A stretch of 34,831 bases of DNA from Wenjunlia vitaminophila DSM 41686 (GTDB taxonomy: Bacteria > Actinomycetota > Actinomycetes > Streptomycetales > Streptomycetaceae). Made by a program: the position numbers and the translations under genes. The notes beneath the pieces are model-generated. The model searched no databases and was not told the DNA's origin. It saw only the letters and a list, made by a program, of their open reading frames with translations. The number at the start of each line of letters is the position of its first letter. Within the stretch, counting starts at the first letter, position 1. The stretch covers positions 1 to 34,831 of the forward strand of contig NZ_KB904694.1 in the NCBI RefSeq assembly GCF_000380165.1. The letters are read 5' to 3'. Positions 2,611-33,130 of the stretch are shown in pieces.

Positions 2611-2835
2611 GGCTCTGGCGCGCCGATCACTCTCCGCACTGGCCAGCGTCGACCCTCCGTAGCCGGCTCACCTTCGAGACCCCGTCTGTCACCCACCGGC
2701 AAGCGGGGTCCCTGCGTACAGCACAGAGCCCCTGTCGACCACACAGCAGCGCCAACACACAGAGCCCCAGCTCTTCCGGGTCATGAACGACTCGGGGAGG
2801 TCGGGGCTCTTTCCTGCATGTGGACAGGGGTCCGG
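2611..2835. other. Non-coding gap between integrase and the 75-residue ORF
   Basis: No supported gene. It contains two inverted repeats: a 7-bp stem at 2678-2684/2704-2710, and the 8-bp arms listed separately at 2761-2810. The DNA is compositionally like the integrase. With the integrase reading into it from the left and the small ORF from the right, it is a convergent 3' region and a possible place for an attachment half-site. Confidence 0.4.
2761..2810. terminator. Possible bidirectional terminator between integrase and small ORF
   Basis: Inverted arms AGAGCCCC (2761-2768) and GGGGCTCT (2803-2810) are separated by 34 nt. The right arm is followed by TTCC rather than a long T run. The position between two convergent reading frames fits a terminator, but the long loop makes it weak. 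Confidence 0.3.
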
Positions 2836-3063
2836 CTACACCCACTCGATTGAGGCGGAGACGGACACTCGGGACGCTTCTGTCTCTGTCGGTAGCGGCG
2901 TACGAGGAGCGGGGGCAGGGGTTCGTTCCATACGTCGAGCACCCATCCGAGAGAGCGCCTGTACGGCCTGCTCCCGCTCATTCTCGGACAGCTTGGCCAG
3001 GGCCTCGGCTACCGCCTCACGGGCCCGCTCAGGGGCAGGTAACGGCCTCCCTGACCTGCTCAC
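2836..3063 (-). CDS. Hypothetical 75-residue protein coupled to the radical SAM gene
   Basis: A GTG start at 3063-3061 overlaps the TGA of the radical SAM gene in a GTGA arrangement. The last sense codons of that gene (encoding GREGK) read GGTAGGGAGGGGAAG, which also supplies a strong purine-rich Shine-Dalgarno. Both facts favour a real, translationally coupled gene. The product is a charged helix (about 10-42, AREAVAEALAKLSENEREQ and on) followed by a proline-rich, likely disordered tail. No family is recognised. It is not the TIGR03936/DUF2344 protein that I expect at this place in actinomycetes. It carries a TTA codon at residue 8. It could be a small protein brought by the mobile element, or a chance ORF. 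Confidence 0.45.
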   Translation of the reverse strand: MSRSGRPLPAPERAREAVAEALAKLSENEREQAVQALSRMGARRMERTPAPAPRTPLPTETEASRVSVSASIEWV

Positions 3064-5006: not shown

Positions 5007-5079
5007 CGCTGTGTCTCTCGTGAGCGGGTGGGGAGTGTGGTCCCCAACCCTAACCCGCCGAGCGGGTCACCGACGACGT

Positions 5080-5129
5080 CCTCCGGCTCCCCCCGGGGGG
5101 CACGGGTGGCCGCCAGGGGGAGCCGGAGG
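5080..5129 (-). terminator. Hairpin terminator after rodA
   Basis: Perfect 14-bp inverted arms, CCTCCGGCTCCCCC at 5080-5093 and its complement at 5116-5129, with a 22-nt loop. It begins 38 nt after the rodA stop. No T run follows, as is usual for high-GC actinomycete terminators. It probably ends the mreB-to-rodA transcript. Confidence 0.65.
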
Positions 5130-5166
5130 CACGCGTACCGGGCACCGCGGCGGGACCTGCTCCCGG

Positions 5167-6363
5167 TCACGCGGAGACGGGGCGTTGCAGGCGGATGGAC
5201 TGGAGGAGCCCCACCGCTATCCAGACCGCGAACATCGACGTCCCGCCGTAGGAGACGAACGGCAGCGGAAGTCCGGCCACGGGCATGATGCCCAGCGCCA
5301 TCCCGATGTTCTCGAACGCCTGGAAGGCGAACCAGGACACCACCCCCGCGGCCACTATCGTGCTGTAGAGGTCCTTGGCGTTCCGGGCGATGGCGCAGGC
5401 CCGCCAGAGCACGACGCCGATCAGCAGGATCAGCCCGCCGGCCCCGACGAAGCCCAGTTCCTCCCCGGCGACGGTGAAGATGAAGTCGGTCTGCTGTTCG
5501 GGGACGAACTGCCCGGTGGTCTGGCTGCCGTGCAGCAGCCCCTTGCCCAGCAGCCCGCCGGAGCCGATGGCGATCCTGGCCTGGTTGGTGTTGTAGCCGA
5601 CGCCCGCGGGGTCGAGGGCCGGGTTGGCGAACGCCGCGAACCGGTTGATCTGGTACTCGTCCAGGACGCCGAGCTGCCAGATCAGCACCGCCCCCGCCAC
5701 ACCGGTGCCGATCAGGCCGACCACCCACCGGTTGGAGGCGCCGGACGCCAGCAGCACCCCCAGCACCACGATGGCCATCACCATGACCGAACCCATGTCC
5801 GGCATCAGCAGGACCACGCCCATCGGGAGCGCGGCCAGCGCCAGGGCGTACAGGACGGTGCGGTGGTCGGGGTGTTCCCGGTCGCCGGTGTCCACCTTGG
5901 TGGCCAGCAGCACCGCCATCCCCAGGATGATGGTGATCTTGGCGAACTCCGCCGGCTGGATGGTGAAGCCGCCGCCGACCACCAGCCAGGCGTGCGCGCC
6001 GTTGATGGTGGTGCCCAGGGGAGTGAGCACCGCCCCGAGCAGCAGGATCGACAGGATGTAGAACGCCGGGACCGCGCTGCGCAGCCGGCGGTGCCCGATG
6101 GCCATGACCGCACCGGCCAGGACCAGCCCTATCACCACGTTGACCACGTTGCGGAACAGGAAGTAGTACTGGTCACCGTGGGTGAGCTCGGTGCGGTTCC
6201 GGGTGGCGGACCACACCAGCACGGTCCCCAGGCCGGACAGCATCAGGGCGGCGATCACCATCACCCAGTCCATGCGCCACAGCCAGGAGTCACGGGCGAG
6301 CAGCCGGCCCAGCGAGGAGCGGGGCGGGGAGTACCGGGCGACGGAGTAGCCGGTGCTGGTCAT
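5167..6363 (-). CDS. rodA: RodA, SEDS-family peptidoglycan glycosyltransferase
   Basis: A 398-residue polytopic membrane protein of the SEDS family (RodA/FtsW/SpoVE), which polymerises lipid II into glycan strands with a class B PBP partner. Landmarks are the conserved QPAEFAKI (136-142), PEQQTDFIF (288-296) whose Asp293 matches the essential SEDS aspartate, and the C-terminal NIGMALGIMPVAGLPLPFVSYGG. About ten hydrophobic segments are visible. The ATG at 6363 overlaps the PBP2 stop as ATGA, so the synthase pair is translationally coupled, which fits the RodA-PBP2 complex. RodA rather than FtsW is chosen because it sits in the mre cluster and there is no ftsQ/murG context. Confidence 0.95.
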   Translation of the reverse strand: MTSTGYSVARYSPPRSSLGRLLARDSWLWRMDWVMVIAALMLSGLGTVLVWSATRNRTELTHGDQYYFLFRNVVNVVIGLVLAGAVMAIGHRRLRSAVPAFYILSILLLGAVLTPLGTTINGAHAWLVVGGGFTIQPAEFAKITIILGMAVLLATKVDTGDREHPDHRTVLYALALAALPMGVVLLMPDMGSVMVMAIVVLGVLLASGASNRWVVGLIGTGVAGAVLIWQLGVLDEYQINRFAAFANPALDPAGVGYNTNQARIAIGSGGLLGKGLLHGSQTTGQFVPEQQTDFIFTVAGEELGFVGAGGLILLIGVVLWRACAIARNAKDLYSTIVAAGVVSWFAFQAFENIGMALGIMPVAGLPLPFVSYGGTSMFAVWIAVGLLQSIRLQRPVSA

Positions 6364-14316: not shown

Positions 14317-16953
14317 TCAGGACCGGGGCAGCGCCGCGAGCTGGTTGGTGAGGCGGGTGACCTCCTGTTCAGCGGTGGCCAGGCGCTCCCGGATGCGGCC
14401 CACCACCTGGTCCGGCGCCTTGGCCAGGAACGCCTCGTTGGAGAGCTTGGCGGAGGTCTGGTCCCGCTCCTTCTCCGCGGCGCGCAGGTCCTTCGTCAGA
14501 CGCTTGCGTTCGGCCTCCACGTCGATCGCACCGGACAGGTCCAGGGCCACCACCGCACCGGCCACCGGCAAGGTGGCGGTGACGCGGAAGTCCTCGCCCT
14601 CGGGGTCCAGGCGCAGGAGCTGCCGGATCGCCTCCTGGTGCGGGATCAGCACGGTGCCGTCCAGGGTCAGCCTCGCCGGCACCCGCTGGCCGGGCTTGAG
14701 GCCCTGCTCGGCGCGGAACCTGCGGACCTCGGTGACCAGTTGCTGCACGGCGGCGATCTCCGCCTCGGCCGCGGCGTCCCGGAAGCCGCTGTCCCGCGGC
14801 CACTCGGCGACCACCACGGACTCCCGCCCGGTGAGCGCGGTCCACAGGGCCTCGGTGACGAACGGGACGACCGGGTGGAGCAGCCTCAGCATGACCTCGA
14901 GGACCTCGCCGAGCACCCGGCGGGTGGCGGTGGCCGCTGCCCCGCCCTGGGCCAGGGTGGTCTTGGAGAGCTCCACGTACCAGTCGAAGACCTCGTCCCA
15001 GGCGAAGTGGAACAGGGCGTCGGAGACCTTGGCGAACTGGTAGTCCTCGTAGTAGGCGTCCGCCTCGGCGACCGTGGCGTTGAGCCTGGACAGGATCCAC
15101 CGGTCGGCGGCGGTCAGCTCGTCGGGGGCGGGCAACGGCCCCTGGACCGTGGCCCCGTTCATCAGGGCGAAGCGGGTGGCGTTCCAGATCTTGTTGCAGA
15201 AGTTCCGCGACGCCTGGACCCAGTCCTCGCCGATCGGCACGTCCACCCCGGGATTGGCGCCCCTGGCCAGGGTGAACCGCACGGCGTCCGAGCCGTAGCG
15301 GTTCATCCAGTCCAGCGGATCGACCGCGTTCCCGCCCGACTTCGACATCTTCTTGCCGAACTGGTCCCGGACCAGGCCGTGCAGGGCGACGACGGGGAAC
15401 GGCGGGACGCCGTCCATCGCGTACAACCCGAACATCATCATCCGGGCGACCCAGAAGAAGAGGATGTCGTACCCGGTGACCAGGACGGAGTTCGGATAGA
15501 ACTTCTCCAGGCTGGCGGTGCGGTCCGGCCAGCCGAGCGTGGAGAAGGGCCACAGCCCGGACGAGAACCAGGTGTCCAGGACGTCCTCGTCCTGCCGCCA
15601 GCCAGGACCGGTCGGCGGCTCCTCGTCAGGACCCGGGCAGACCACCTCGCCGTTGGGCCCGTACCAGATCGGGATGCGGTGCCCCCACCAGAGCTGCCGG
15701 GAGATGCACCAGTCGTGCATGTTGTCCATCCAGCCGAAGTAGCGCGGCTCCATCTCCTTGGGGTGGATGGTGACCCGACCGTCGCGCACCGCGTCCCCGG
15801 CGGCCTTGGCCAACGGGCCGACCTTGACCCACCACTGGAGGGACTGGCGCGGCTCGATGGTCGTCTTGCACCGGGAGCAGTGTCCGACCGCGTGGACGTA
15901 GGGCCGCTTCTCGGCCACGATCCGGCCGTCGGCGCGCAGCGCGGCGACAATCGCGGACCGGGCCTCGAACCGGTCCAGCCCCTGGAACGGGCCGTGCGCG
16001 GTGATCACCCCGCGCTCGTCGAGGACCGCCAGGGACGGCAGGTCGTGGCGGCGGCCGATCTCGAAGTCGTTGGGGTCGTGGGCCGGGGTGACCTTGACCG
16101 CACCGGTGCCGAACTCCGGGTCCACGTGGGGGTCCGCGACCACGGGGATGCGCCGCCCGGTCAGCGGCAGCTCGATCTCGGTGCCGACCAGGTGCCGGTA
16201 CCGCTCGTCGTCCGGGTGGACGGCGACCGCCGTGTCCCCGAGCATGGTCTCGGCCCGGGTGGTGGCGACCACGATGGCGGCGTCTCCGTCGCCGTACCGG
16301 ATGGAGACCAGCTCGCCGTCGTCGTCCTGGTACTCGACCTCGATGTCGGAGATGGCGGTGAGACAGCGCGGGCACCAGTTGATGATGCGCTCGGCACGGT
16401 AGATCAGGCCGTCCTCGTAGAGCCGCTTGAACATCGTCCGCACGGCCCTGGACAGCCCCTCGTCCATGGTGAAGCGCTGGCGTGACCAGTCCACGCCGTC
16501 GCCGAGGCGCCGCATCTGGCCAAGGATGCGCCCCCCGGACTCCTCCTTCCACTGCCAGACCCGCTCCACGAACGCGTCACGGCCCAGGTCGTGTCGGGAC
16601 TTGCCCTCCCTGGCCAGTTCACGTTCGACGACGTTCTGGGTGGCGATGCCCGCGTGGTCCATGCCGGGCTGCCACAGCGCCTCGTAGCCCTGCATCCGCT
16701 TCCTGCGGGTCAGCGCGTCGATGAGGGTGTGCTCGAAGGCGTGGCCCAGGTGCAGGCTGCCGGTGACGTTCGGCGGCGGGATGACGACGGTGAACGGAGG
16801 CTTGCTGCTCTTGTCGTGTGCCTCGAAGTAACCAGCGGCTACCCAGCGCTCGTACAGCGTCTCCTCTACCTCAGCGGGCGTGTACTGGGTGGGCAGATGC
16901 TCGGGCGCGCTGGAATGCCCCTCGTTGGTGGGGCGCTGGTTAGTGTCGGTCAC
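14317..16953 (-). CDS. valS: Valyl-tRNA synthetase
   Basis: Class I aminoacyl-tRNA synthetase that charges tRNA-Val. The GTG at 16953 is taken as the start, giving 878 residues, the usual family size. An open frame continues 37 codons upstream but has no similarity and would run into the divergent gene's leader. Motifs: class I signature HLGH (68-71) in [20 protein letters not shown] at 535-539, the CP1 editing region between them ([19 protein letters not shown]), and an intact C-terminal coiled coil (about 805-878, [19 protein letters not shown]) that binds tRNA. It is divergent from the membrane-protein gene at 17085, with 131 bp between starts. Confidence 0.96.
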
Positions 16954-17084
16954 GACCGCCAGTGTACGGAAGCGGCGCCCACGCTCACGAACGCATAACC
17001 ATGGCAACCCCCGGCCGATGGCGCGCGTCGGAGTCCGAGAGGATGTCCGGCCCAGAGCAACCATCCCGAGGAGCTCCTACCGAG

Positions 17085-18011
17085 ATGAGCAACTACCAGC
17101 CGGGTGCCCAGCCACCGCAGCCGGGGTTCGGACCGCAGCCGGGGTTCGGACCGCCGTCGGCGTACCCGGCGCCCGCCCAGCCCCAGCCGGGCCAGGTACC
17201 GCCGCCGTCCGGCCACGGCCACCCACAGCCCGGCTACGGGACCGGCCCCCACCCCGGGTACGGCTACGGCCCCGGGTACCCGTACGCGCCCCAGCCGCAG
17301 CCCGGGTACGGCCCGTCCACGCCGCCGCCGTCCCCCGGCGGCGGACGGCGCACCGGCCTGGTCGTCGCCGGCCTGGCCACCGCGGTGGCGCTGGCCGTGG
17401 CCGGGGTGTTAGTGGTTCCGCGGCTGCTTCCCGAGGACGACCCGGACCCGGCGTACGAGCTGCGTTCCCCCGAGCGGTTCGCCGGCCCGGACGGCCTGGT
17501 CTACGCGCTCGAGGAGGACGAGGACGGCAACGACCACAGCGGAACCACCTACCCCGACCTCAGCGCCGACGGCAAGGACCTCACGCGCGTCAACCCCACC
17601 TTCCGCGCCAAGGACGCCGAGTACCCGTTCTACTCGGTGAGCGCGGCCTACGGGGCGATCAAGGACCCGGAGGCCGCGATGAACGCGCAGATGCAGGACA
17701 AGCGCGACCGGGGCTTCAAGGTGGTCGGCACGCCCAGGGACTTCGACCCGCGGGCCAGCGGGGACGAGGGCGACGTGCGCATCCGGTGCGTGGTGCTGGA
17801 ACGGCACGAGGAGGGCGACACGGACTACTACATGGGGACCTGCGGTTGGGCGAACCGAAGCACCATGGGCATGGTCGCCGAGTTCGCCGGGAACGACGGC
17901 GCCCGGCCCAGCGAATCCGACCTGGAGGAGCTGTGCGAGATGACCATCACCATCCGCAAGAACATGCAGGTCGCCGCGGGCTCCTCAAACGAGCACGGCG
18001 CTCGGACCTGA
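17085..18011 (+). CDS. Proline/glycine/tyrosine-rich single-pass membrane protein
   Basis: 308 residues from an ATG at 17085, preceded by GAGGAG 11 nt upstream; in-frame ATGs further up lack a site. The first 90 or so residues are cytoplasmic, disordered and made of P-Q-P-G-[FY]-G repeats, a common actinobacterial N-terminus. One membrane helix follows (about 91-113), then an exported domain of about 190 residues with several acidic stretches and two cysteines. The external domain (YPFYSVSAAYGAIKDPEAAMNAQMQ, RCVVLERHEEGD, MGTCGWANRSTMGMV) is not assigned to any family I recognise; the type is widespread in this phylum as a hypothetical protein. Codon 109 (17409-17411) is TTA, a rare codon in such genomes. 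Convergent with clpX, 50 bp apart. Confidence 0.82.
   Translation: MSNYQPGAQPPQPGFGPQPGFGPPSAYPAPAQPQPGQVPPPSGHGHPQPGYGTGPHPGYGYGPGYPYAPQPQPGYGPSTPPPSPGGGRRTGLVVAGLATAVALAVAGVLVVPRLLPEDDPDPAYELRSPERFAGPDGLVYALEEDEDGNDHSGTTYPDLSADGKDLTRVNPTFRAKDAEYPFYSVSAAYGAIKDPEAAMNAQMQDKRDRGFKVVGTPRDFDPRASGDEGDVRIRCVVLERHEEGDTDYYMGTCGWANRSTMGMVAEFAGNDGARPSESDLEELCEMTITIRKNMQVAAGSSNEHGART
17115..17150 (+). repeat. Perfect 18-bp tandem duplication in the proline-rich region
   Basis: CCGCAGCCGGGGTTCGGA occurs at 17115-17132 and again at 17133-17150 without a mismatch, encoding two copies of PQPGFG. Perfect identity suggests a recent slippage duplication. Confidence 0.85.
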
Positions 18012-18061
18012 CCGCGGGCCGGCCGCGCCCACGGACGGTCCGCGGGCGCCGGCGGGGCCGC

Positions 18062-19345
<1,284 letters not shown>

Positions 19346-19434
19346 GAGGTGCTTCTCCTTCGCCTCGGTCCCTGGTTTCCGCGAGACCTGGTGCTTGGTA
19401 TCCGACCGTACCCTGACTGGCCCGGTCAATGGCC

Positions 19435-19469
19435 CCCCTTGGGCCGACTTCGTCCGTCGGCCCAAGGGG
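19435..19469 (-). terminator. Strong hairpin terminator after clpP2
   Basis: Perfect 14-bp stem: CCCCTTGGGCCGAC at 19435-19448 pairs with 19456-19469 around a 7-nt loop, starting 8 nt after the clpP2 stop. It should end the clpP1-clpP2 transcript before clpX. Confidence 0.8.
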
Positions 19470-19477
19470 ACTTCACG

Positions 19478-20149
19478 TCAGGTGAGCGTGGCCGAGCTCT
19501 TCCGGGTGGAGATGATCTGGTCCACGAGACCGTAGTCCAGGGCCTCTTCGGCGGTCAGGATCTTGTCACGCTCGATGTCCTCGCGGATCACCGCGACGTC
19601 CTTGTTGGAGTGCTTGGCCAGCATCTCCTCCATCTGCTCCCGCATCCGGAGGATCTCCCGGGCCTGGATCTCCAGGTCCGACACCTGCGCCCTACCCGTC
19701 TCACTGTACGGCTGGTGGATCAGGATTCGGGCGTTGGGCAGCGCGAGGCGCTTGCCGGGGGTACCGGCGGCCAGGAGCACCGCCGCGGCCGAGGCCGCCT
19801 GTCCCATGCAGACCGTCTGGATGTCGGGCTTGACGAACTGCATGGTGTCGTAGATCGCGGTGAGCGCGGTGAAGGAACCACCGGGGCTGTTGATGTAGAT
19901 CGAGATCTCCCGGTCCGGGTCCATGGACTCCAGGCACAGCAACTGGGCCATGACGTCGTTCGCGGAGGCGTCGTCGATCTGCACGCCGAGGAAGATCACC
20001 CGCTCTTCGAAGAGCTTGGCATACGGGTCGTACTCCCGGATGCCCTGCGAGGTGCGCTCGACGAACCGCGGAACGACGTAGCGTCCCTCCGCGCGCATGG
20101 CCTCGAACCTGGACGCCGGCTGGATCGGGGTGTTCATCTGGTGGTTCAC
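19478..20149 (-). CDS. clpP2: ClpP2, ATP-dependent protease proteolytic subunit
   Basis: 223 residues from an ATG at 20149. A serine peptidase of the ClpP family with catalytic Ser120 ([11 protein letters not shown]), His145 (ILIHQP) and Asp195 (ERDKIL). The N-terminal propeptide-like region ([29 protein letters not shown]) matches the longer of the two actinobacterial paralogues. In actinobacteria ClpP1 and ClpP2 form mixed two-ring tetradecamers driven by ClpX or ClpC. It starts 54 bp after clpP1, without a hairpin, so the two are one operon. Confidence 0.95.
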
Positions 20150-20203
20150 CGTCCTGGTGGTGAGCTGGCTGGGAGCGGATCGGTCCTGCGGGGCGTGCCG
20201 TGC

Positions 20204-20860
20204 TCAGGCACCGGTCCCGCCCCCGCCGGGGACGCCGGTGGCGGAGTGCATGACCTCGTCCAGGAGGCCGTACTCCTTCGCCTCCTGAGCGGTGAACCAG
20301 CGGTCGCGGTCGGAGTCCCGGGTGATCTGCTCGACCGTCTGGCCGGAGTGCCGTGCGGTGATGTCGGCCATCTTCTTCTTGGTGCGCAGGAGCTGCTCCG
20401 CGTGGATCTTGATGTCCGACGCGGACCCGGCGAGGCCGGCCGAGGGCTGGTGCATCAGGATCTCCGCGTTGGGCAGCGCGAACCGCTTGCCCGGGGTGCC
20501 CGCGGTGAGCAGGAACTGCCCCATCGACGCGGCCAGTCCCATCGCGATGGTCACGATGTCGTTCTTCACGTACTGCATGGTGTCGTAGATCGCCATGCCG
20601 GCCGTGACGGACCCACCCGGGGAGTTGATGTAAAGGAAGATGTCCTTGTCGGGGTCCGCGGCCAGCAGCAGCAACTGCGCGGTGATCCGGTTCGCGATCT
20701 CGTCATCCACCGGCTGGCCGAGGAAGATGATGCGCTCGTTGAGCAGCCGGTTGTAGACCTGGTCGCCCAGACCGCCGATGTTCGGCTCAGTCGTGGCGGT
20801 GGGCGTCACGGGCCCCGGCGTCATGCCGTACCGGATGGTTTGGGGGCGTGAAGTCGTCAC
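20204..20860 (-). CDS. clpP1: ClpP1, ATP-dependent protease proteolytic subunit
   Basis: Serine peptidase with Ser112 ([11 protein letters not shown]), His137 (ILMHQP) and Asp186 (DRDRWF). The GTG at 20860 gives 218 residues and has AGGTGG at a suitable distance; an upstream in-frame start at 20926 would add 22 residues without conservation. A Gly-rich C-terminal tail ([10 protein letters not shown]) is present. First gene of the clpP1-clpP2 operon. A ClgR-type box lies 156 bp upstream, suggesting stress-induced activation as known in Streptomyces, Corynebacterium and Mycobacterium. Confidence 0.95.
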
Positions 20861-25419: not shown

Positions 25420-26661
25420 TCATCGAGGGCCGCGTCGAGCCGGAACGGGCCGGTCCCGACCGGTGGCCTCGTTCCCGCGGCGTTGGAGTTCCTGCCGGTA
25501 GGCGGCGAGACGCGCGGTGCGGCCGATGGTGAGGGCTCCCACGAGCCGCCCCTGGTGTTCGTAGGCGACCTCGAGGCGTCCGGCGGCGGGTTCCCGTTCC
25601 ACGACCCTGACGGTGTCGGCGAGTGCCGGGAGCCCGACGGAGCGTATCCGGGCGCCGTGCAGGTCCGACCAGAACGAGGGGACGCCGCGGAACGGTTCTG
25701 GCCGGTCGGGGTGGAGCAGGGTGCGTGCCGCCGCCTCTCCCTGCTCCGCGGCGTTGGTCCAGTGCCCGAGCAGCAGGTGCCGGCCGCCGGCGAGGGGGTG
25801 CGGGACGCTGGCGACGTCGCCCGCCACGACGACGCCGGGGGCGACTGTTCCGTCCTGGCGCAGGGCGCGCAGGTAGGCGTCGCAGCGTATGCCCGCACGG
25901 ATGTCGAGGCCCGCCCCGGCGAGCCAGCGGGTGGCCGGCACCGCGCCGAGGGCCAGGACGGCGGTGTCGGCGGGCAGGCGTGACCCGTCGGAGAGTCGCA
26001 GCGCGACGAGCCGGCCCCGCTCGGCCTCGAAGGCCTCCACGGTGGTGCCGGTGCGCAGGTCGATGCCGGCTCCCCGGTGGAGCGCGGCTACGTGGGCTCC
26101 GACCTCGGTGCCGACGGCGCCCAGCAGGGGCTGTTCTGCGGCCACCAGGAGGGTGACGTGGGCCCCGCGGGCGCGGGCGGCGGCGGCGACCTCGCTCCCC
26201 AGGAAGCCACCGCCGACGACCGCGGTCCTCCGGCCGGGGCGCAGTTCGCCCCGCAGTCGCAGCGCGTCGTCGAGGCCGCGCAGGGTGAGGACGCCGTGCG
26301 GTGGGGGACGGTGGCCGGGCCAGCTCCTGGCCACCGCTCCGGTGGTGATGACCAGGGCGTCGTAGGGGACGGCCGTGCCGTCGCTGAGGTTGACGGTGCG
26401 GTGTTCGATGTCCAGGCCGGCGGCCGGGCGGCCCAGGAGCCACCGTGCGTGCAGGTCGTCCCGGACGGGCAGCGTGGTGTCGGGGGGCGGGCCGGTGGCG
26501 GTGAGGACCTGCTTGGACAGGGGCGGCCGGTCGTACGGAGGGTGTGGCTCGGCCCCGACGATGGTCAGGGTGCCGGCGAAGCCACCGGCACGCAGGGCCT
26601 CGGCTGCGCGGAGGCCGGCGAGGGAGGCGCCGACGATGACGAGTTCGGCGGGGACGGTCAT
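25420..26661 (-). CDS. FAD-dependent ferredoxin reductase
   Basis: 413 residues from an ATG at 26661 overlapping the ferredoxin stop (ATGA). Two dinucleotide-binding folds: FAD at 8-16 (VIVGASLAG) and NAD(P)H at 147-155 (AVVGGGFLG). The motif YDRPPLSK (43-50) and VVVAGDVASVP, which contacts FAD, are those of the putidaredoxin/rhodocoxin reductase family. A C-terminal reductase domain ends the protein. It would pass electrons from NAD(P)H to the ferredoxin encoded just upstream. Such pairs usually serve a cytochrome P450, but none is present here; the FMN-type protein encoded two genes upstream is the local candidate acceptor. Last gene of the operon. Confidence 0.92.
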   Translation of the reverse strand: MTVPAELVIVGASLAGLRAAEALRAGGFAGTLTIVGAEPHPPYDRPPLSKQVLTATGPPPDTTLPVRDDLHARWLLGRPAAGLDIEHRTVNLSDGTAVPYDALVITTGAVARSWPGHRPPPHGVLTLRGLDDALRLRGELRPGRRTAVVGGGFLGSEVAAAARARGAHVTLLVAAEQPLLGAVGTEVGAHVAALHRGAGIDLRTGTTVEAFEAERGRLVALRLSDGSRLPADTAVLALGAVPATRWLAGAGLDIRAGIRCDAYLRALRQDGTVAPGVVVAGDVASVPHPLAGGRHLLLGHWTNAAEQGEAAARTLLHPDRPEPFRGVPSFWSDLHGARIRSVGLPALADTVRVVEREPAAGRLEVAYEHQGRLVGALTIGRTARLAAYRQELQRRGNEATGRDRPVPARRGPR

Positions 26662-26855
26662 CGGGCGCCCGGGGTGACGGTGATGGCGCGGACGGGACAG
26701 GAGGCCGCGGCGCGTTCCACCTTCTCCAGCAGGGAGTCGGCGGGTGAGGGGTCGTGCAGGAGGCGGTCCTCGTCGTCGAAGGAGAACACCTCGGGCGCGG
26801 CGAAGACGCACTGGCCGTGGCTCTCGCAGAGGTTCATGTCCACGGTGATCCGCAT
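26658..26855 (-). CDS. 3Fe-4S-type ferredoxin
   Basis: 65 residues from an ATG at 26855. Three cysteines are placed as in P450-type single-cluster ferredoxins: Cys10 and Cys16 in CESHGQC, and Cys53 followed by Pro. The position that would be the fourth ligand of a 4Fe-4S cluster is His13, so a 3Fe-4S cluster is expected. The acidic middle (FSFDDEDRLLHD) is typical. It accepts electrons from the overlapping reductase gene's product. The gap to the upstream flavoprotein gene is 54 bp, without a hairpin. Confidence 0.93.
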   Translation of the reverse strand: MRITVDMNLCESHGQCVFAAPEVFSFDDEDRLLHDPSPADSLLEKVERAAASCPVRAITVTPGAR

Positions 26856-26909
26856 AGCTGCTCCGGTTCGGGGGGTCGTGCGGGGAGGGCGGGGCGGGCG
26901 GGGCGGGTC

Positions 26910-27824
26910 TCAGCGCACCGGCGGGTTGAAGCGGGAGAAGTGGGGGGCGCCCCAGCGCAGGGACGAGGCTCCGGCGATCTCGCGCACCGTGGTGATGCGG
27001 AACTCCACCATGCGTGGGACACCACGGTCTCCTGGGGTCGTCCCGTCAGCCCACAGGGTCTCGGCGGTGCCGGTCAGGTGCAGCGTCGTGCCCGTCTCCC
27101 AGTGGGGTACGAGCAGCCCGGCCGCCGGGTTGGTGGCGAGGTTGCCCAGGGTCAGGAACATGTTGTTGCCCGGGTAGTCGGGCCAGCGCAGCAGGGTCGG
27201 TGACGGGACGTCGACGAAGCCGGGGTTGCCGCCGCGGTGGGAGGCGTCCGCCTCGCCCGTGTCGGAGGCCGTCGCGACGAAGAAGGTGTCGGCCGAGCGG
27301 ACCACGCGCTGCTGGGCCTCGGTGAGCGCGGAGCCGTCGGTGACCGTGCGGGTGTCGGGCGAGGGCCCGGCGGTGCCGTGGACCTGCCTCTTCTGGATGT
27401 ACTTGGGGCAGTTGGCGATGACCTGGTCGAGTTCGACGCGCAGGCCGCGACCGTGGGGGACGGCGCGGCCGTTCATCCGCATCCGGCGCCGGGTGGCGGG
27501 TTCGATGGCGATCAGGCCCAGGTGGACCGGCGCCGGGGGGTCCGTGAGCGTCCCGAGGAGCGGGTCCCCCGGTGCGGGCAGGGCGTCGATGGTGAGGCTG
27601 CGCGGGGTGTCCGCCCGGAGGAAGCCGGGCGGCCCGGTCAGCATGGTCGCCCAGACACGGCCGACCGGGTCCGTGCCTCCCAGGACGAGCAGCGGTTGTT
27701 CCGCGAGGAACGCCGCGGCGACGTCCGGGATCGTGTCCCCGATGCCGCCCAGGGAGAACGTGGCCTGGCTGGTGAGACCGGCCCGGGCCTGCACCGCGGT
27801 CTCGCCTCGGTGGTACTCGGCCAT
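26910..27824 (-). CDS. Pyridoxamine 5'-phosphate oxidase-like flavoprotein
   Basis: 304 residues from an ATG at 27824 with AAGGAA upstream. Two split-barrel-like halves are suggested: LLVLGGTDPVGRVWATMLTGPPGF in the first, and FFVATASDTGEADASHRGGNPGF with TLGNLATNPAAGLLVP in the second. The latter is the classic FMN-binding PNPOx (PF01243) pattern. Between them is CPKYIQKRQ, typical of this larger PNPOx-like family. It is too long and too divergent to be the vitamin B6 enzyme PdxH. From memory, relatives of this size occur fused to flavin reductase and iron-sulfur domains; here the electron-transfer parts are separate genes next door. Substrate unknown. Confidence 0.85.
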   Translation of the reverse strand: MAEYHRGETAVQARAGLTSQATFSLGGIGDTIPDVAAAFLAEQPLLVLGGTDPVGRVWATMLTGPPGFLRADTPRSLTIDALPAPGDPLLGTLTDPPAPVHLGLIAIEPATRRRMRMNGRAVPHGRGLRVELDQVIANCPKYIQKRQVHGTAGPSPDTRTVTDGSALTEAQQRVVRSADTFFVATASDTGEADASHRGGNPGFVDVPSPTLLRWPDYPGNNMFLTLGNLATNPAAGLLVPHWETGTTLHLTGTAETLWADGTTPGDRGVPRMVEFRITTVREIAGASSLRWGAPHFSRFNPPVR

Positions 27825-27870
27825 GGGATGTTCCTTTCCGGGGGGCCTGGGCGGCGGCGGGGGTGGGTGC

Positions 27871-28326
27871 CTAGAAGAAGCCGCAGGTCGGCGCGCCAGG
27901 TGTGGGTGCCGCCACCGGGTCCGCGCCGGTGGGCGCGTAGATCTCCAGCCGGATGCCGTCGGGGTCGTAGAAGAAGATCCCTCCCGAGGTCTCCCCCTCG
28001 CCGTGCGGGACGACGCCGTCGTGGGCGAACTCCGCACCCATGCCACGCAGTACTTCGGTGGCCGCGTCCACCTCGGCGGGGGTGTCCACCTGGAAGGACA
28101 GGTGGTGAAGACCGGGGGAGTCGGTACGGAACGCGCCGTCGCTCTGCTGCCACAGGGTGACCATCAGCCGGTTCTCCCGTCCGAGGAAGGCCCAGCGGCG
28201 GCCCTCCTCCCGGCCCTCGGCCATCACTTCGACGTCGAGGACCGCGCGGTAGAAGGCGAGCGAGCGCTCGAGGTCGGTGACGTTCAGGCCGACGTGGCCG
28301 GTCTGCAGCGAAACGATCTTGGTCAT
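27871..28326 (-). CDS. VOC-family metalloprotein (glyoxalase/dioxygenase fold)
   Basis: 151 residues from an ATG at 28326; an in-frame start 10 codons earlier falls in the leader. The vicinal-oxygen-chelate fold is clear from HVGLNVTDLERSLAFYRAVLDVEV, the central GLHHLSFQVDT and the C-terminal FFYDPDGIRLEIYAP. Likely metal ligands are His11, His74 or His75, and Glu128. Members include lactoylglutathione lyase, extradiol dioxygenases and resistance proteins, and the exact reaction cannot be told. The tail ends in CGFF. It is the first gene of the operon with the PNPOx-like protein, ferredoxin and reductase, 46 bp ahead of the PNPOx-like gene. Confidence 0.88.
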   Translation of the reverse strand: MTKIVSLQTGHVGLNVTDLERSLAFYRAVLDVEVMAEGREEGRRWAFLGRENRLMVTLWQQSDGAFRTDSPGLHHLSFQVDTPAEVDAATEVLRGMGAEFAHDGVVPHGEGETSGGIFFYDPDGIRLEIYAPTGADPVAAPTPGAPTCGFF

Positions 28327-28370
28327 GTCGATTCCATGCCTTCGACTCAGGATCACAGGGAGGTCCCCGT

Positions 28371-28398
28371 AACCAGTGATACGGACTTTAAGGGTTAG
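28371..28398. promoter_or_regulatory. Operator repeat 1 between VOC operon and CGNR regulator
   Basis: AACCAGTGAT, then six bases, TT, four bases, GGTTAG. The same 28-nt layout recurs at 28413-28440, exactly 42 bp downstream. TAACC and GGTTA at its ends also form an inverted repeat (28370-28374/28393-28397). It covers the proposed -10 of the operon promoter. Confidence 0.65.
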
Positions 28399-28414
28399 AT
28401 GCCCGGACCGTCAA
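28386..28414 (-). promoter_or_regulatory. Candidate promoter of the VOC-PNPOx-ferredoxin-reductase operon
   Basis: The minus strand has TTGACG (28414-28409), a 17-nt spacer and TTAAAG (28391-28386). The -35 is a five-of-six match; the -10 is weak. Transcription would start near 28379, inside operator repeat 1, leaving a leader of about 53 nt. Confidence 0.5.
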
Positions 28415-28440
28415 CCAGTGATCTCCGTTTGGTCGGTTAG
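28413..28440. promoter_or_regulatory. Operator repeat 2 between VOC operon and CGNR regulator
   Basis: Second copy of the 28-nt unit (AACCAGTGAT start, GGTTAG end; 18 bases identical to repeat 1). It touches the proposed -35 of the minus-strand promoter and lies 39 nt before the CGNR start codon, so a bound protein could act on both genes. Confidence 0.65.
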
Positions 28441-28479
28441 GGTTGGACGCCGAGCGTCCCGCGAGAGGAAGTACGCCCC

Positions 28480-29049
28480 GTGCCACCAGCCCCCGCCGAC
28501 CCCCGACCGCTGACCGGCGAGCCGCTCGCCATCGACCTGCTCAACACCCGCTGGATCGACACCGAGGGGTTCCACGACCTGCTGGAGGACGTCCAGGGGC
28601 TCGCCGTCTGGCTCGACAGCCCTCCGGTGCGCCAGGCGCTTGGCGGGGCCGGGGTCCGCGCCGACGCCGCCACCCTGCGCCCGCTGCTGCAGACCCGGGC
28701 GGCGCTTGACGCACTTGTCGACCAGCGCCCCCCGTACCGGGCGGACGCCGTCGCGGGACTCAACTCCGTCCTGGATCACGGCCGGATCAGACACCGGCTG
28801 ACGCCGGAGGGTCCGGCGACCGACGTCGAGCTGGACGCCCCGTCATGGCAGCCGGCCTGGGCCGCCGCCGTTGACTTCCTCCGGTTGCTCGCGGAGCGCC
28901 CCGAACGCATCCGCCCGTGCGCCAACCCCAACTGCGTCCTGCACTTCTACGACGTGTCGAAGAACGGCAACCGCCGTTGGTGCTCCATGGCGGGTTGCGG
29001 CAACCGCGCCAAGGCCTCGCGGCACTACGCCCGCAGGAGCCAGGGGTGA
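28480..29049 (+). CDS. CGNR zinc-finger transcriptional regulator (ABATE-domain protein)
   Basis: 189 residues from a GTG at 28480, with GAGAGGAA 9 nt upstream. The N-terminal ABATE-like region (about 12-140, EPLAIDLLNTRWID) is a predicted ligand-sensing domain with the conserved DLLNT stretch. The C-terminal CGNR zinc finger is complete: CANPNCVLHFYDVSKNGNRR and then WCSMAGCGNRAKASRHYARR, with four cysteines and the namesake CGNR. This family is thought to bind DNA as stress or metabolite sensors. It is divergent from the VOC operon with 153 bp between starts, in which the paired 28-bp repeats lie, so regulation of that operon and of itself is the natural inference. Confidence 0.9.
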   Translation: MPPAPADPRPLTGEPLAIDLLNTRWIDTEGFHDLLEDVQGLAVWLDSPPVRQALGGAGVRADAATLRPLLQTRAALDALVDQRPPYRADAVAGLNSVLDHGRIRHRLTPEGPATDVELDAPSWQPAWAAAVDFLRLLAERPERIRPCANPNCVLHFYDVSKNGNRRWCSMAGCGNRAKASRHYARRSQG

Positions 29050-31163: not shown

Positions 31164-31679
31164 GACGCACCAGACGGCCTTCCCTCCGGGGGTGGAGCGC
31201 ACCCCCCAACTGCCGCTGAGCGCCTGCACCAGGAACAGGCCCCGCCCGGCAGTGGCCGTGACCTCCGGCGCGGACGAACGCTGCCGCAGGGTCAGCGGGC
31301 GGCCGCCGTCCCGGACCTCGATCCGCAGCCACTCGTCGCGCCGGCCGAGCACCACCGTGAACTTCCCCGCCGGCCGGCCCCCCGCGTGCTCCACGGCGTT
31401 CCCCGCGAGCTCGGTGACCAGCAGCGCGGCGGAGTCCGCCGCCTCGCCCAGCACACCGTGCGACCGCAGCGCCTTGAGCACCGCCCTGCGGCACCGGGGA
31501 ACGGAGGCCGCGGTCGCCGGGTAGGTCCAGGACCGCGCCCAGGGGCCGTGCGCACCTGAGCGGACTCCAAGGAAACCGTCCACGGCCGGAACCGGTCTCG
31601 GCTGGGTCTGTGGGCTCAACTGTTGCCCCCTGCGGTCGGATTCACACGCTCGGGCCTGAGGTGACGAGCACCCAGACAT
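31149..31679 (-). CDS. RsbW-like ATP-binding protein (anti-sigma-factor kinase type)
   Basis: A GHKL-type ATPase of the HATPase_c_2 group, which in partner-switching systems binds sigma factors or phosphorylates an anti-anti-sigma protein. 176 residues if begun at the ATG at 31679; a TTG 5 codons upstream is possible, and the conserved part begins near residue 50. The N box is LVTELAGNAVEHAG (Glu90, Asn94), the G1 box is EVRDGG, and GRGLFLVQALS is the lid region. The following gene upstream (31846) encodes a SpoIIE-like phosphatase on the same strand, which suggests one signalling pathway. No STAS protein or sigma gene is in the window. Confidence 0.85.
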   Translation of the reverse strand: MSGCSSPQARACESDRRGQQLSPQTQPRPVPAVDGFLGVRSGAHGPWARSWTYPATAASVPRCRRAVLKALRSHGVLGEAADSAALLVTELAGNAVEHAGGRPAGKFTVVLGRRDEWLRIEVRDGGRPLTLRQRSSAPEVTATAGRGLFLVQALSGSWGVRSTPGGKAVWCVLGVC

Positions 31680-31845
31680 GAACACTCTAAGCAATCATTC
31701 CACTGCGATGAGTGACGATCTGGGATATTCACACGGGCACACGCCTTCGACTGTCAATTCCCCACGTCAACCGGACCGCGGCGAGCGGGGCCCGCGGGTC
31801 CGGCGCGCCACGGACGGGAGGCCCGACGGGCGCCCCTGCGGGAAG

Positions 31846-33006
31846 TCACAGGCGGCAGATCAGCAGGATGGCCCGGTCGTCGTTGACGTCCTTGGCCACG
31901 GCGTCTATCAACCGCCAGGCGGAGTCCTTGAAACCACGGGTGACATAGCGTTCGGCCTCCCCGACCAGCCGGTCCACCCCGTCGATCAGGTCCCGGTCGG
32001 CGGCCTCCACCATCCCGTCGGTGAACAGCATCAGCACGTCACCCGAGCGCATGGTGCCGCGCACCCCGTCGAACTTGGCGCCCTCGTAGACCCCGAGCAG
32101 CGGCCCCTCGGCCGACTTCTCCTCCCAGCGGCCGGAGCCGGCCACCAGGTGCATCGCCGGGAGGTGTCCGGCGGAGAGCAGTTCGTAGTCGCCCGTGTCC
32201 AGGTCCAGGACCAGGTGCGCCGAGGTGGCGAAGCCCTCCGCCCACTCCTGTCGCAACAGGTAGCCGTTGGCTGCCGGCAGGAACTCGTGCGGCGGCAGCG
32301 AGCCCAGCAGCCCGCCGAACGCGCCGGAGAGCATCAACGCCCGCGAGCCGGCGTCCATGCCCTTGCCGGACACGTCGGTGAGCACGGCCTCGAACACCCG
32401 CCCGCCGGCGGTGCGGGTGGCGACCAGGAAGTCACCGGAGAAGGACTGACCGCCGGCCGGCCGCAGCGCCATCTCGGCGTGCCAGCCCTTGGGCAGAGCG
32501 GGGATCTGGCTCTGCACCCGCAGCCGTTCCCGCAGGTCGAACAGCATGGTGCCGCCCCCGCGCCAGGGCACGCCGACCCGGCTTCGGAACTGAGCCAGGG
32601 TCAACCCGGCACAGCCCACAGCGATCACGACCAGGATGCTGCCCGGAGCCACCCCGCCGCCGATGTCCAGTCCGCCGCCGGCCCGGTCCCATGCCTCCAG
32701 GTACACGGTCTCCACCAGCAGCGCCACCGCCACCAGGGCGTACAACAGCAACAGGCTCGACGGGCGGAGCATGATGCCGCCCACCACGACCGGCAGCACC
32801 ACGGCCACCGGCGGACACCACGCGGGCGCCAGCAGCGTCCCGGCGACCAGGATGGGAACGGTCAACATCAGGGCGGCCATGGCCGTCCAGTCGGCCCCGT
32901 CCCCACGGAAGTAGTCCACCCCGGAGCGGCGCACCCGGCGCCAGGTCCGGCGAAGCGCCCTGCGTACCCGGGCCCGCGGGCCCTCCGCCGCCGCACTTAC
33001 TGCCAT
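31846..33006 (-). CDS. Membrane-anchored PP2C/SpoIIE-family serine phosphatase
   Basis: 386 residues from an ATG at 33006; the open frame extends far upstream through antisense of the Eis gene and is not coding there. A basic N-terminus is followed by a membrane region of about four segments (about 42-138), then a cytoplasmic PP2C-type domain. Metal-binding aspartates are seen in FSGDFL (Asp192), TDVSGKGMDA (Asp211), FTDGMVEA (Asp330) and NDDRAIL (Asp376/377). Such enzymes dephosphorylate anti-anti-sigma (STAS) proteins, opposing kinases like the RsbW-type protein encoded 166 bp downstream. Divergent from the Eis-type gene. Confidence 0.9.
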   Translation of the reverse strand: MAVSAAAEGPRARVRRALRRTWRRVRRSGVDYFRGDGADWTAMAALMLTVPILVAGTLLAPAWCPPVAVVLPVVVGGIMLRPSSLLLLYALVAVALLVETVYLEAWDRAGGGLDIGGGVAPGSILVVIAVGCAGLTLAQFRSRVGVPWRGGGTMLFDLRERLRVQSQIPALPKGWHAEMALRPAGGQSFSGDFLVATRTAGGRVFEAVLTDVSGKGMDAGSRALMLSGAFGGLLGSLPPHEFLPAANGYLLRQEWAEGFATSAHLVLDLDTGDYELLSAGHLPAMHLVAGSGRWEEKSAEGPLLGVYEGAKFDGVRGTMRSGDVLMLFTDGMVEAADRDLIDGVDRLVGEAERYVTRGFKDSAWRLIDAVAKDVNDDRAILLICRL

Positions 33007-33130
33007 GGTGGGCGACACTAGCCGCCTTCCCCGTACTCCGCACGGGAACATCACGGACGACCTGTGGTGAAAGCGGCAGTTCACGCCGGGCGCGTGAGAA
33101 GGGAACACGCCGGCCGTTCGCCGTAAAACA

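What the first reader, a model, noticed from the sequence alone, without database searches (positions are those of the whole stretch)
25420..29049. Self-contained redox operon: VOC, PNPOx-like flavoprotein, 3Fe-4S ferredoxin and reductase, without a P450, under a CGNR regulator
Ferredoxin/reductase pairs of this type usually feed a cytochrome P450, yet no P450 is nearby. The first two genes encode a PNPOx-like split-barrel flavoprotein and a metal-dependent VOC protein. The ferredoxin and reductase genes overlap, and the gaps before them are 54 and 46 bp, so the four probably form one transcript. A testable idea is that the flavoprotein is the terminal electron acceptor, reducing a small molecule that the VOC protein then handles, with the CGNR protein as sensor. 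I recall relatives where a PNPOx domain is fused to reductase and iron-sulfur domains, which would support this pairing. I know of no described system with these five genes.
Basis: partly seen in the sequence, partly recalled or inferred. Interest (0 to 1): 0.72.

Follow-up and report, generated by a model that had tools for sequence, protein, structure and literature searches.

The report
CGNR-controlled flavoprotein and tailed VOC operon
A recurrent, apparently undescribed actinobacterial gene unit pairs a flavin protein with a metal enzyme that nearly always ends in the same four residues (Cys-Gly-Phe-Phe), sits behind a newly found candidate regulator site, and in this genome carries its own electron supply, probably to neutralise a reactive small molecule.

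Summary
Across relatives, though, ferredoxin and reductase are optional: all five genes occur in 33 of the 80 closest loci, but the redox pair in only 4 of 28 class-wide. The conserved core is VOC plus PNPOx flavoprotein, usually with a divergent CGNR regulator.

New here:
(1) In a 296-genome sample, all 28 genomes with this VOC have a PNPOx gene beside it.
(2) The VOC ends in a flexible Ala/Pro-rich linker and Cys-Gly-Phe-Phe (109 of 112 distinct proteins).
(3) Between CGNR and VOC lies a double site, TAACC-N18-GGTT, on the -35 and -10 boxes, unique in its own genome and associated with CGNR in held-out loci.

Best explanation: an inducible detoxification unit in which NAD(P)H electrons reach the flavoprotein, which with the VOC disarms an electrophile. 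Substrate and chemistry are inferred. Boldest reading: the VOC tail is a tethered thiol replacing glutathione.

The parts
25420..26661 (-). Ferredoxin reductase of the BphA4/TodA/putidaredoxin-reductase kind, 413 aa
   Evidence: Pfam Pyr_redox_2 + Reductase_C; best solved relatives 4h4r/1d7y, E about 1e-52. Optional in relatives: 37 of 80 loci.
26658..26855 (-). Single-cluster ferredoxin, 65 aa, CxxHxxC...C; overlaps the reductase by 4 bp
   Evidence: Fer4_15; relatives include a P450-fused ferredoxin domain, 6mcw. 41 of 80 loci.
26910..27824 (-). PNPOx-type flavoprotein, 304 aa: C-terminal split barrel plus a beta-rich N-terminal half; conserved N138-C139-P140 and H196-R197-G198-G199
   Evidence: AlphaFold2 mean pLDDT 91.5; split-barrel matches over residues 157-288; C139 in 144 of 144 distinct sequences.
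27871..28326 (-). VOC metalloenzyme, 151 aa, invariant H11, H75, E128, H108; flexible Ala/Pro linker and C-terminal Cys148-Gly149-Phe150-Phe151
   Evidence: 93 of 93 aligned VOCs; tails listed; tail pLDDT 51 and 37 in the last two blocks.
28413..28439 (-). Candidate operator site 1, TAACC-N18-GGTT; its right arm runs into the -35 box TTGACG
28371..28397 (-). Candidate operator site 2, TAACC-N18-GGTT; covers the -10 box TAAAGT
28385..28414 (-). Predicted promoter of the VOC-PNPOx-ferredoxin-reductase operon (TTGACG, 18 nt, TAAAGT)
   Evidence: the only promoter-like site in 28250-28560; shuffles mean 0.0.
28480..29049 (+). ABATE + CGNR zinc-finger regulator, divergent from the operon, 189 aa
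   Evidence: CGNR relative near the core in 72 of 80 loci.

Best explanation
This is an inducible detoxification unit for a reactive (electrophilic, probably quinone- or enone-like) small molecule. The divergent CGNR protein binds two TAACC-N18-GGTT sites, 41-42 bp apart on the -35 and -10 boxes, and represses the operon until its ABATE domain senses the compound. NAD(P)H electrons pass through the reductase and ferredoxin to the FMN of the PNPOx-type protein, which reduces the compound. The VOC metalloenzyme acts on the same molecule, using its conserved C-terminal CGFF tail to dock on, or pass the substrate to, the flavoprotein. The reductase/ferredoxin pair is a plug-in: relatives without it must take electrons from the general cell pool, and proteobacterial relatives use a fused FNR/2Fe-2S module. 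Shown by computation: gene content, VOC-PNPOx linkage, the conserved tail, the metal-ligand residues, the operator and promoter geometry, the fusions, and the glutathione-transferase neighbour. Inferred: DNA binding by CGNR, repression rather than activation, electron flow, substrate class, and the role of the tail.
For: Linkage: 28 of 28 class-sample genomes with the VOC have PNPOx within 1 kb, 27 on the same strand. Electron delivery: 5 of 11 proteobacterial loci opened have PNPOx fused to FAD_binding_6-NAD_binding_1-Fer2, two more are fused to part of it, and one has the module as the next gene; ferredoxin and reductase come and go together (8.6 of 10 independent pairs, median p 0.004). Regulation: operator in 65 of 78 intergenic regions (62 of 75 distinct) against a shuffle mean of 0.12 of 78; held-out loci 11 of 16 with a CGNR relative (48% identity or more) against 2 of 24 without (Fisher 1e-4); double site unique in its own genome; on the promoter boxes. 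Tail: C148-G149-F150-F151 in 93 of 93; 109 of 112 distinct VOCs end CGFF. Thiol/electrophile theme: glutathione transferase directly upstream of PNPOx in 9 of 11 proteobacterial loci (two of the nine are Sinorhizobium meliloti strains); the VOC core is close to glyoxalase I, FosA/FosB/FosX and single-domain extradiol dioxygenases.
Against: 24 of 28 class-sample relatives lack the ferredoxin/reductase, so it cannot be essential. No neighbour names a substrate. The PNPOx protein falls below the NCBIfam cut-off for its nearest family (71.4 against 170 bits), so FMN binding rests on Pfam and fold. The phylogenetic independent-pairs test of CGNR against operator is not significant (median p 0.5). 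Of 16 held-out loci scored as having CGNR, 5 lack the operator, and 2 of 24 scored as lacking it have it; 13 of 78 first-set regions have no exact site; of two plasmid copies with CGNR, one has one site and the other none. The proteobacterial loci were picked by hand from 40 rows listed of 342 records, so they are not a random sample; two Streptomyces plasmid relatives that I also opened have neither GST nor VOC directly beside PNPOx. FosA-like, dioxygenase-like and isomerase-like chemistries cannot be told apart by fold.
Confidence: 0.45

Rival explanations
1. The ferredoxin and reductase serve P450 enzymes encoded elsewhere in the genome, and sit in this operon only for co-regulation; VOC and PNPOx work without them.
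For: The genome has 23 P450 matches, some of them pieces of one gene. The nearest solved relatives of the ferredoxin include a P450-fused domain. The core occurs without the pair in 24 of 28 class-sample loci, and 38 of the 80 close loci have neither gene.
Against: At least one genomic P450 (contig C68) has its own ferredoxin gene next to it, and the genome holds other reductase relatives, three of them at E below 1e-49. The pair recurs in the same operon place and is lost or gained as a unit. The same PNPOx family is fused to a reductase/iron-sulfur module in proteobacteria.
Confidence: 0.2
2. The VOC-PNPOx pair is catabolic rather than protective: the VOC is a ring-cleaving extradiol dioxygenase and the flavoprotein prepares its (hydro)quinone substrate for growth.
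For: The metal triad and H108 align with the catalytic domain of catechol 2,3-dioxygenase, and the best sequence hits are extradiol dioxygenases. Single-domain dioxygenases such as 6on1/6on3 are among the fold matches.
Against: The position of the catalytic Tyr of catechol 2,3-dioxygenase (role recalled) is Phe118 here (92 of 93). No meta-cleavage gene was among the window frames that I scanned.
Confidence: 0.2
3. Tethered-thiol model: the C-terminal Cys-Gly-Phe-Phe of the VOC is a built-in thiol cofactor on a swinging linker that forms the adduct with the electrophile in the VOC site and presents it to the flavoprotein, standing in for the glutathione that proteobacteria use with GST.
For: Conserved CGFF at the chain end behind a linker of near-constant length (20 residues from E128 to C148 in 105 of 118) and Ala/Pro/Thr/Gly composition. 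The neighbour is GST in glutathione-using bacteria (9 of 11 opened). C139 of PNPOx is invariant, 144 of 144 distinct rows. PNPOx position 115 goes with the partner: Met with VOC, Asn in 9 of 11 proteobacterial proteins.
Against: Cys-Gly is only a dipeptide. A docking tail, or a tail that closes the VOC's own active site in the dimer, would show the same conservation. C139 is also invariant where there is no VOC, and position 115 is confounded by phylogeny. Two divergent VOCs end CGHF and CGFFD, and the Yinghuangia VOC lacks the stop after CGFF.
Confidence: 0.22
4. The conserved tail is a docking peptide or a self-inserting lid with no redox role.
For: FF at a free C-terminus behind a flexible linker is what a short docking motif looks like; in the class sample the VOC always neighbours PNPOx.
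Against: The Cys and Gly are as invariant as the Phe pair (93 of 93), and one divergent VOC keeps Cys-Gly while changing a Phe.
Confidence: 0.35

Closest known systems
Quinone-detoxification operons of Firmicutes (MhqR regulon: VOC dioxygenases with a flavin reductase)
   Same: A repressor-controlled small operon that pairs a VOC (ring-cleavage type) with a flavoprotein; the works-like model used here. Background seen only as a search listing with abstract beginnings (PMC6798810, PMC12893000); the gene details are recalled.
   Different: MarR-type regulator there, CGNR here; a different flavoprotein family there (recalled), split-barrel PNPOx here; no dedicated ferredoxin chain and no CGFF tail there that I know of.
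Proteobacterial GST + PNPOx-FNR-Fer2 loci (for example Azospirillum, Agrobacterium, Leisingera plasmids)
   Same: Same full-length PNPOx family (the 11 opened: 32-40% identity over 85-99% of the protein), with an NAD(P)H/iron-sulfur electron module in whole or part in 8 of 11.
   Different: Electron module unrelated and mostly fused; GST in place of VOC and LysR in place of CGNR in most of the loci opened. I know of no functional description and made no dedicated literature search for these loci.
ABATE/CGNR regulator Jann_2411
   Same: ABATE plus CGNR zinc finger; predicted dimeric, ligand-responsive DNA-binding protein (PMC2954205, passages read).
   Different: No operator or target was given in the passages I read; here a target operon and a site are proposed.
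P450 ferredoxin/ferredoxin-reductase pairs
   Same: Same protein families.
   Different: No P450 found in the window; the constant neighbours are PNPOx and VOC.
FosA/FosB and glyoxalase I
   Same: VOC fold (Z about 12-15) with a metal triad; these enzymes use a low-molecular-weight thiol (established knowledge).
   Different: Below the NCBIfam cut-off of each of the 25 families shown (of 30 matched); carries the CGFF tail.

Membership tests
P450 redox-partner operon | P450 gene in the same locus | tested here: not met
   No P450 match on the window's contig; none among the 19 window frames scanned besides the operon.
P450 redox-partner operon | Ferredoxin and ferredoxin reductase of the P450-partner families | tested here: met
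Type I extradiol dioxygenase | 2-His-1-Glu metal triad | tested here: met
   H11, H75, E128 in 93 of 93, aligned with 1mpy.
Type I extradiol dioxygenase | Second-shell catalytic His and Tyr | tested here: inconclusive
   H108 matches one His; the Tyr position is Phe118; the other His is not aligned. Residue roles are recalled.
Type I extradiol dioxygenase | Passes the curated NCBIfam cut-off of a member family | tested here: not met
   44.1 against 320.2 bits for catechol 2,3-dioxygenase; no listed family passes (25 of 30 shown).
MSMEG_1061-family FMN-dependent PPOX flavoprotein (TIGR04025) | Curated cut-off of 170 bits | tested here: not met
   71.4 bits over residues 164-255 only.
FMN split-barrel (PNPOx-like) fold | Split-barrel domain | tested here: met
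   PNPOx_N above its cut-off; Z 8-11, mainly over residues 157-288.
FMN split-barrel (PNPOx-like) fold | Bound FMN | not testable with these tools
   Needs purified protein.
ABATE/CGNR regulators | ABATE domain plus CGNR zinc finger with Cys ligands | tested here: met
   Both above Pfam cut-off; C147, C152, C173 and G174-N175-R176 conserved.
ABATE/CGNR regulators | Sequence-specific DNA binding | tested here: inconclusive
   Site conserved and associated with CGNR but not under the independent-pairs test; no binding assay.
MhqR-type quinone detoxification operon | MarR-type repressor | tested here: not met
   The regulator is ABATE/CGNR. The claim is only that it works like one.
MhqR-type quinone detoxification operon | Induction by quinones | not testable with these tools
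   Needs expression data.

The most novel reading that the evidence does not exclude
The C-terminal Cys-Gly-Phe-Phe of the VOC protein is a tethered thiol cofactor on a swinging Ala/Pro linker. It captures an electrophile in the VOC active site and delivers the adduct to the invariant Cys139/FMN site of the neighbouring flavoprotein, which a ferredoxin chain keeps reduced. It would be a self-contained substitute for the glutathione plus glutathione-transferase pair that accompanies the same flavoprotein in proteobacteria.
Probability: 0.22. Interest if true: 0.87.

Novelty: new variant of a known kind. Interest (0 to 1): 0.62.

Why it matters
It turns a set of 'pyridoxamine oxidase', 'VOC' and 'CGNR' annotations, found across several actinobacterial families, into one defined unit with a testable operator, a testable electron path and a striking conserved C-terminal CGFF tail. 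I found no operator described for CGNR/ABATE proteins in the papers I could search, so the TAACC-N18-GGTT double site gives a direct way into that regulator family. If the tail is a built-in thiol, it would be a new solution for electrophile detoxification in organisms that lack glutathione.

Tried and rejected
Rejected: a fixed five-gene system (4 of 28 class loci with ferredoxin and reductase). Rejected: a VOC-PNPOx fusion in L164; in the long frame there Pfam finds only PNPOx. Rejected: C-terminal fusion of PNPOx to redox domains in actinobacteria; in 79 of 80 loci the frame ends within 10 residues of the aligned end and in the other within 26.

Inconclusive: neighbours of some VOC-less PNPOx loci (CMD, DUF1348, aldo-keto reductase, NUDIX, TetR, FMN_red, patatin, GntR; 9 genes from 8 loci scanned, of 22 VOC-less loci) name no substrate. 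A residue comparison of VOC-bearing (119) and VOC-less (22) PNPOx gave M115 as the sharpest difference, but it follows phylogeny. The DNA pattern for a PTCGFF-stop tail was too strict: it omitted TAG stops and missed the window's own. It found 6 genomes of 296, and all six places lie at the VOC end by coordinates, so it speaks for specificity only.

The N-terminal half of PNPOx (1-156) was barely tested by the fold search; that it may be a second split barrel is my reading of its strands. Families absent from the VIA-align lists are not excluded.

Literature: searches showed, in their listings, no paper on this combination, on a CGFF tail in this setting, or on a CGNR operator; one search listed 30 of 51 papers and one search listed 11 of 13. 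Most subscription journals are not held. PMC12979805 (passages) concerns an unrelated VOC in a P450 pathway.

Caveats on counts: the 80 loci are the best 80 of 475, so they lean to near relatives. The 78 intergenic regions are those with CGNR and VOC hits on opposite strands and a suitable length, from loci L009-L104 and the window; L075 (same strand) and loci without CGNR were left out, and L089, the window itself, was counted once. L090-L106 and a few class loci duplicate genomes in the 80 (identical sets listed); distinct-sequence counts are. Shuffles were of single bases. In one search, 73 of 833 tiles of 1500 bp hold the motif, the true sites included. For the tree and I dropped L134, L138 and L166 as duplicates and L150 because its PNPOx is broken. 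In one search, L141 and L142 count as 'CGNR 48% or more' only through short zinc-finger hits. Of the 47 PNPOx genomes, several match over the C-terminal domain only.

Between the first and this version of the report I mended counts and wording after a recount. One odds value changed: the tethered-thiol rival went from 0.25 to 0.22 to agree with the novel-case field; no new fact lies behind it.

Full report
What is there. The other window frames that I scanned hold mostly core genes (FtsW/RodA-family protein, a penicillin-binding protein, MreC, MreD, Mur-ligase-like protein, valyl-tRNA synthetase-like protein, ClpX, ClpP) and an O-methyltransferase, and no P450. The genome has 23 P450 matches elsewhere, one with a ferredoxin gene beside it, and other reductase relatives.

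What is conserved. I scanned the genome collection for the PNPOx protein and got the best 80 of 475 relatives. Within 3.5 kb, 78 of 80 have the VOC, 72 of 80 a CGNR relative, 41 of 80 the ferredoxin and 37 of 80 the reductase; 33 have all five, and 34 have CGNR, VOC and PNPOx with neither redox gene. That set leans to near relatives, so I repeated it on 296 genomes drawn evenly from the class. At E 1e-25 the VOC occurs in 28 and the PNPOx protein in 47 (some by its C-terminal domain only). By coordinates every one of the 28 VOCs lies within 1 kb of a PNPOx gene, 27 on the same strand and one divergent. Of these 28 loci only 4, the window included, have ferredoxin and reductase, and 24, the window included, have a CGNR relative beside them; the other 23 of these are at 34-65% identity. 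On a tree of 121 PNPOx proteins, presence of the redox pair changes at least 15 times, and ferredoxin and reductase change together (8.6 of 10 independent pairs, median p 0.004). The operon is also on two Streptomyces plasmids with all five genes.

The VOC tail. All 93 VOCs in the first alignment have H11, H75, E128, H108 and the residues C148-G149-F150-F151. In 91 of 93 the chain ends there; the other two are one Yinghuangia gene, seen in two sources, that lacks a stop after CGFF. Of 27 from the class sample, 25 end CGFF, one CGHF and one CGFFD, and three plasmid copies end CGFF. Counted once each, 109 of 112 distinct VOCs end CGFF. The stretch before it is Ala/Pro/Thr/Gly-rich and of near-constant length (20 residues from E128 to C148 in 105 of 118). 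AlphaFold2 gives it low confidence in the monomer. The 15 more distant VOCs among the plasmid hits align only as far as residues 128-135. A conserved extreme C-terminus behind a flexible linker is what one expects of a tail that works in a partner or an active site.

The flavoprotein. It has a C-terminal split barrel (Z 8-11, mainly over residues 157-288) and a beta-rich N-terminal half that the fold search barely tested. C139, in an N-C-P motif of that half, is in 144 of 144 distinct sequences, proteobacterial ones included. Position 115 is Met in 97% of 119 VOC-linked proteins, Met in 5% of 22 without VOC, and Asn in 9 of 11 proteobacterial ones. This is suggestive but follows phylogeny.

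The electron path. In proteobacterial plasmids the same PNPOx family (the 11 loci opened: 32-40% identity over 85-99% of the protein) is fused to FAD_binding_6, NAD_binding_1 and Fer2 in 5 of 11 loci, to part of that module in 2, and has it as the next gene in 1; the other 3 stand alone, two of them judged by annotated length only. By Pfam families this module differs from the window's reductase and ferredoxin, so two different NAD(P)H-to-iron-sulfur modules have been joined to one flavoprotein family. The 11 loci were chosen by me from 40 rows listed of 342 records; two Streptomyces plasmid relatives that I also opened have PNPOx alone.

The partner in proteobacteria. In 9 of these 11 loci a glutathione transferase is the annotated gene directly upstream of PNPOx (Pfam confirms four of four scanned); two of the nine are strains of one species. 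LysR genes and, in some, DUF1348 or catalase genes are near. The place of GST is taken by the VOC in actinobacteria, which as a rule use mycothiol rather than glutathione (established knowledge). The VOC core is close in fold to glyoxalase I and FosA/FosB, which use thiols, to FosX, which does not, and to single-domain extradiol dioxygenases. Its triad and H108 match catechol 2,3-dioxygenase, but the catalytic Tyr position is Phe118 (residue roles recalled). The common theme that I infer is an electrophile that thiols attack.

The operator. Between CGNR and VOC, 65 of 78 intergenic regions hold TAACC-N18-GGTT, 47 of them twice (62 of 75 and 44 among distinct regions). A search that allowed spacers of 15 to 18 found 112 sites, all with 18. 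Shuffled regions gave a mean of 0.12 of 78, at most 2. The two sites are 14 or 15 bp apart end to start in 45 regions, and in 35 of these the first runs into TTGAC. In the window the only promoter-like site found, TTGACG-18-TAAAGT, starts in the right arm of site 1 and ends within site 2, a layout that suits repression. The double site occurs once in the 6.4 Mb genome, with 0 for the reversed control. In held-out class loci the motif is present in 11 of 16 loci with a CGNR relative of 48% identity or more and in 2 of 24 others (Fisher 1e-4); two loci that have CGNR but no VOC also keep it (L073, L165). Against this, a phylogenetically strict pairs test was not significant (median p 0.5), and of two plasmid copies with CGNR one has one site and the other none. 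Most Actinomadura regions lack an exact match and show a varied form of the motif by eye, which I did not count. CGNR/ABATE proteins were predicted to be ligand-responsive dimeric DNA-binding proteins from the Jann_2411 structure (PMC2954205, passages); my searches listed no paper on an operator for them.

How it most likely works. Shown: gene content, VOC-PNPOx linkage, a conserved tail, a metal triad, a site on the promoter, and an optional electron source. Inferred: CGNR represses; a toxic electrophile relieves it; NAD(P)H electrons go through reductase and ferredoxin to the flavoprotein, which reduces the compound; the VOC acts on the same compound, with the tail joining the two proteins. 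I give this 0.45. Rivals are in their sections; the most novel, that the CGFF Cys is a tethered thiol that stands in for glutathione, I give 0.22.

Novelty. Each family is known, while the unit, its operator and the tail appear undescribed in the listings of the searches that I ran. I file it as a new variant of a known kind, a flavoprotein-plus-VOC detoxification operon, and not as a member of the MhqR, P450-partner, extradiol-dioxygenase or MSMEG_1061 families.

Noticed in passing
L021 (Yinghuangia soli) 5343-5795: The VOC gene has CGFF at the usual place but no stop after it; the frame runs on for some 450 codons through the neighbouring genes, and no CGNR hit lies beside this copy.
   Followed up: partly
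L037 (Streptomyces gossypii) 3738-5158: Ferredoxin and reductase lie upstream of the VOC instead of downstream of PNPOx, a rearrangement of the same pair.
   Followed up: no
L119 (Jannaschia sp. M317 plasmid): A PNPOx-FNR fusion with GST and LysR lies close to a gene annotated as a reductive dehalogenase, a possible hint of halogenated or quinone-like substrates.
   Followed up: no
L033, L054 (both Embleya) and L092-L094 (unnamed): Ferredoxin kept without a detected reductase beside it; in L048 (Saccharothrix) the reverse, a reductase without a detected ferredoxin.
   Followed up: no
window 2820-5288, 16880-20851 and 31678-33021: Long open frames without any Pfam match at E 0.001; the second lies antisense to ClpX and ClpP and so is probably not a gene.
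   Followed up: no
window 997-2610: Serine recombinase of the resolvase type (Resolvase N-terminal domain) at the left end of the window.
   Followed up: no
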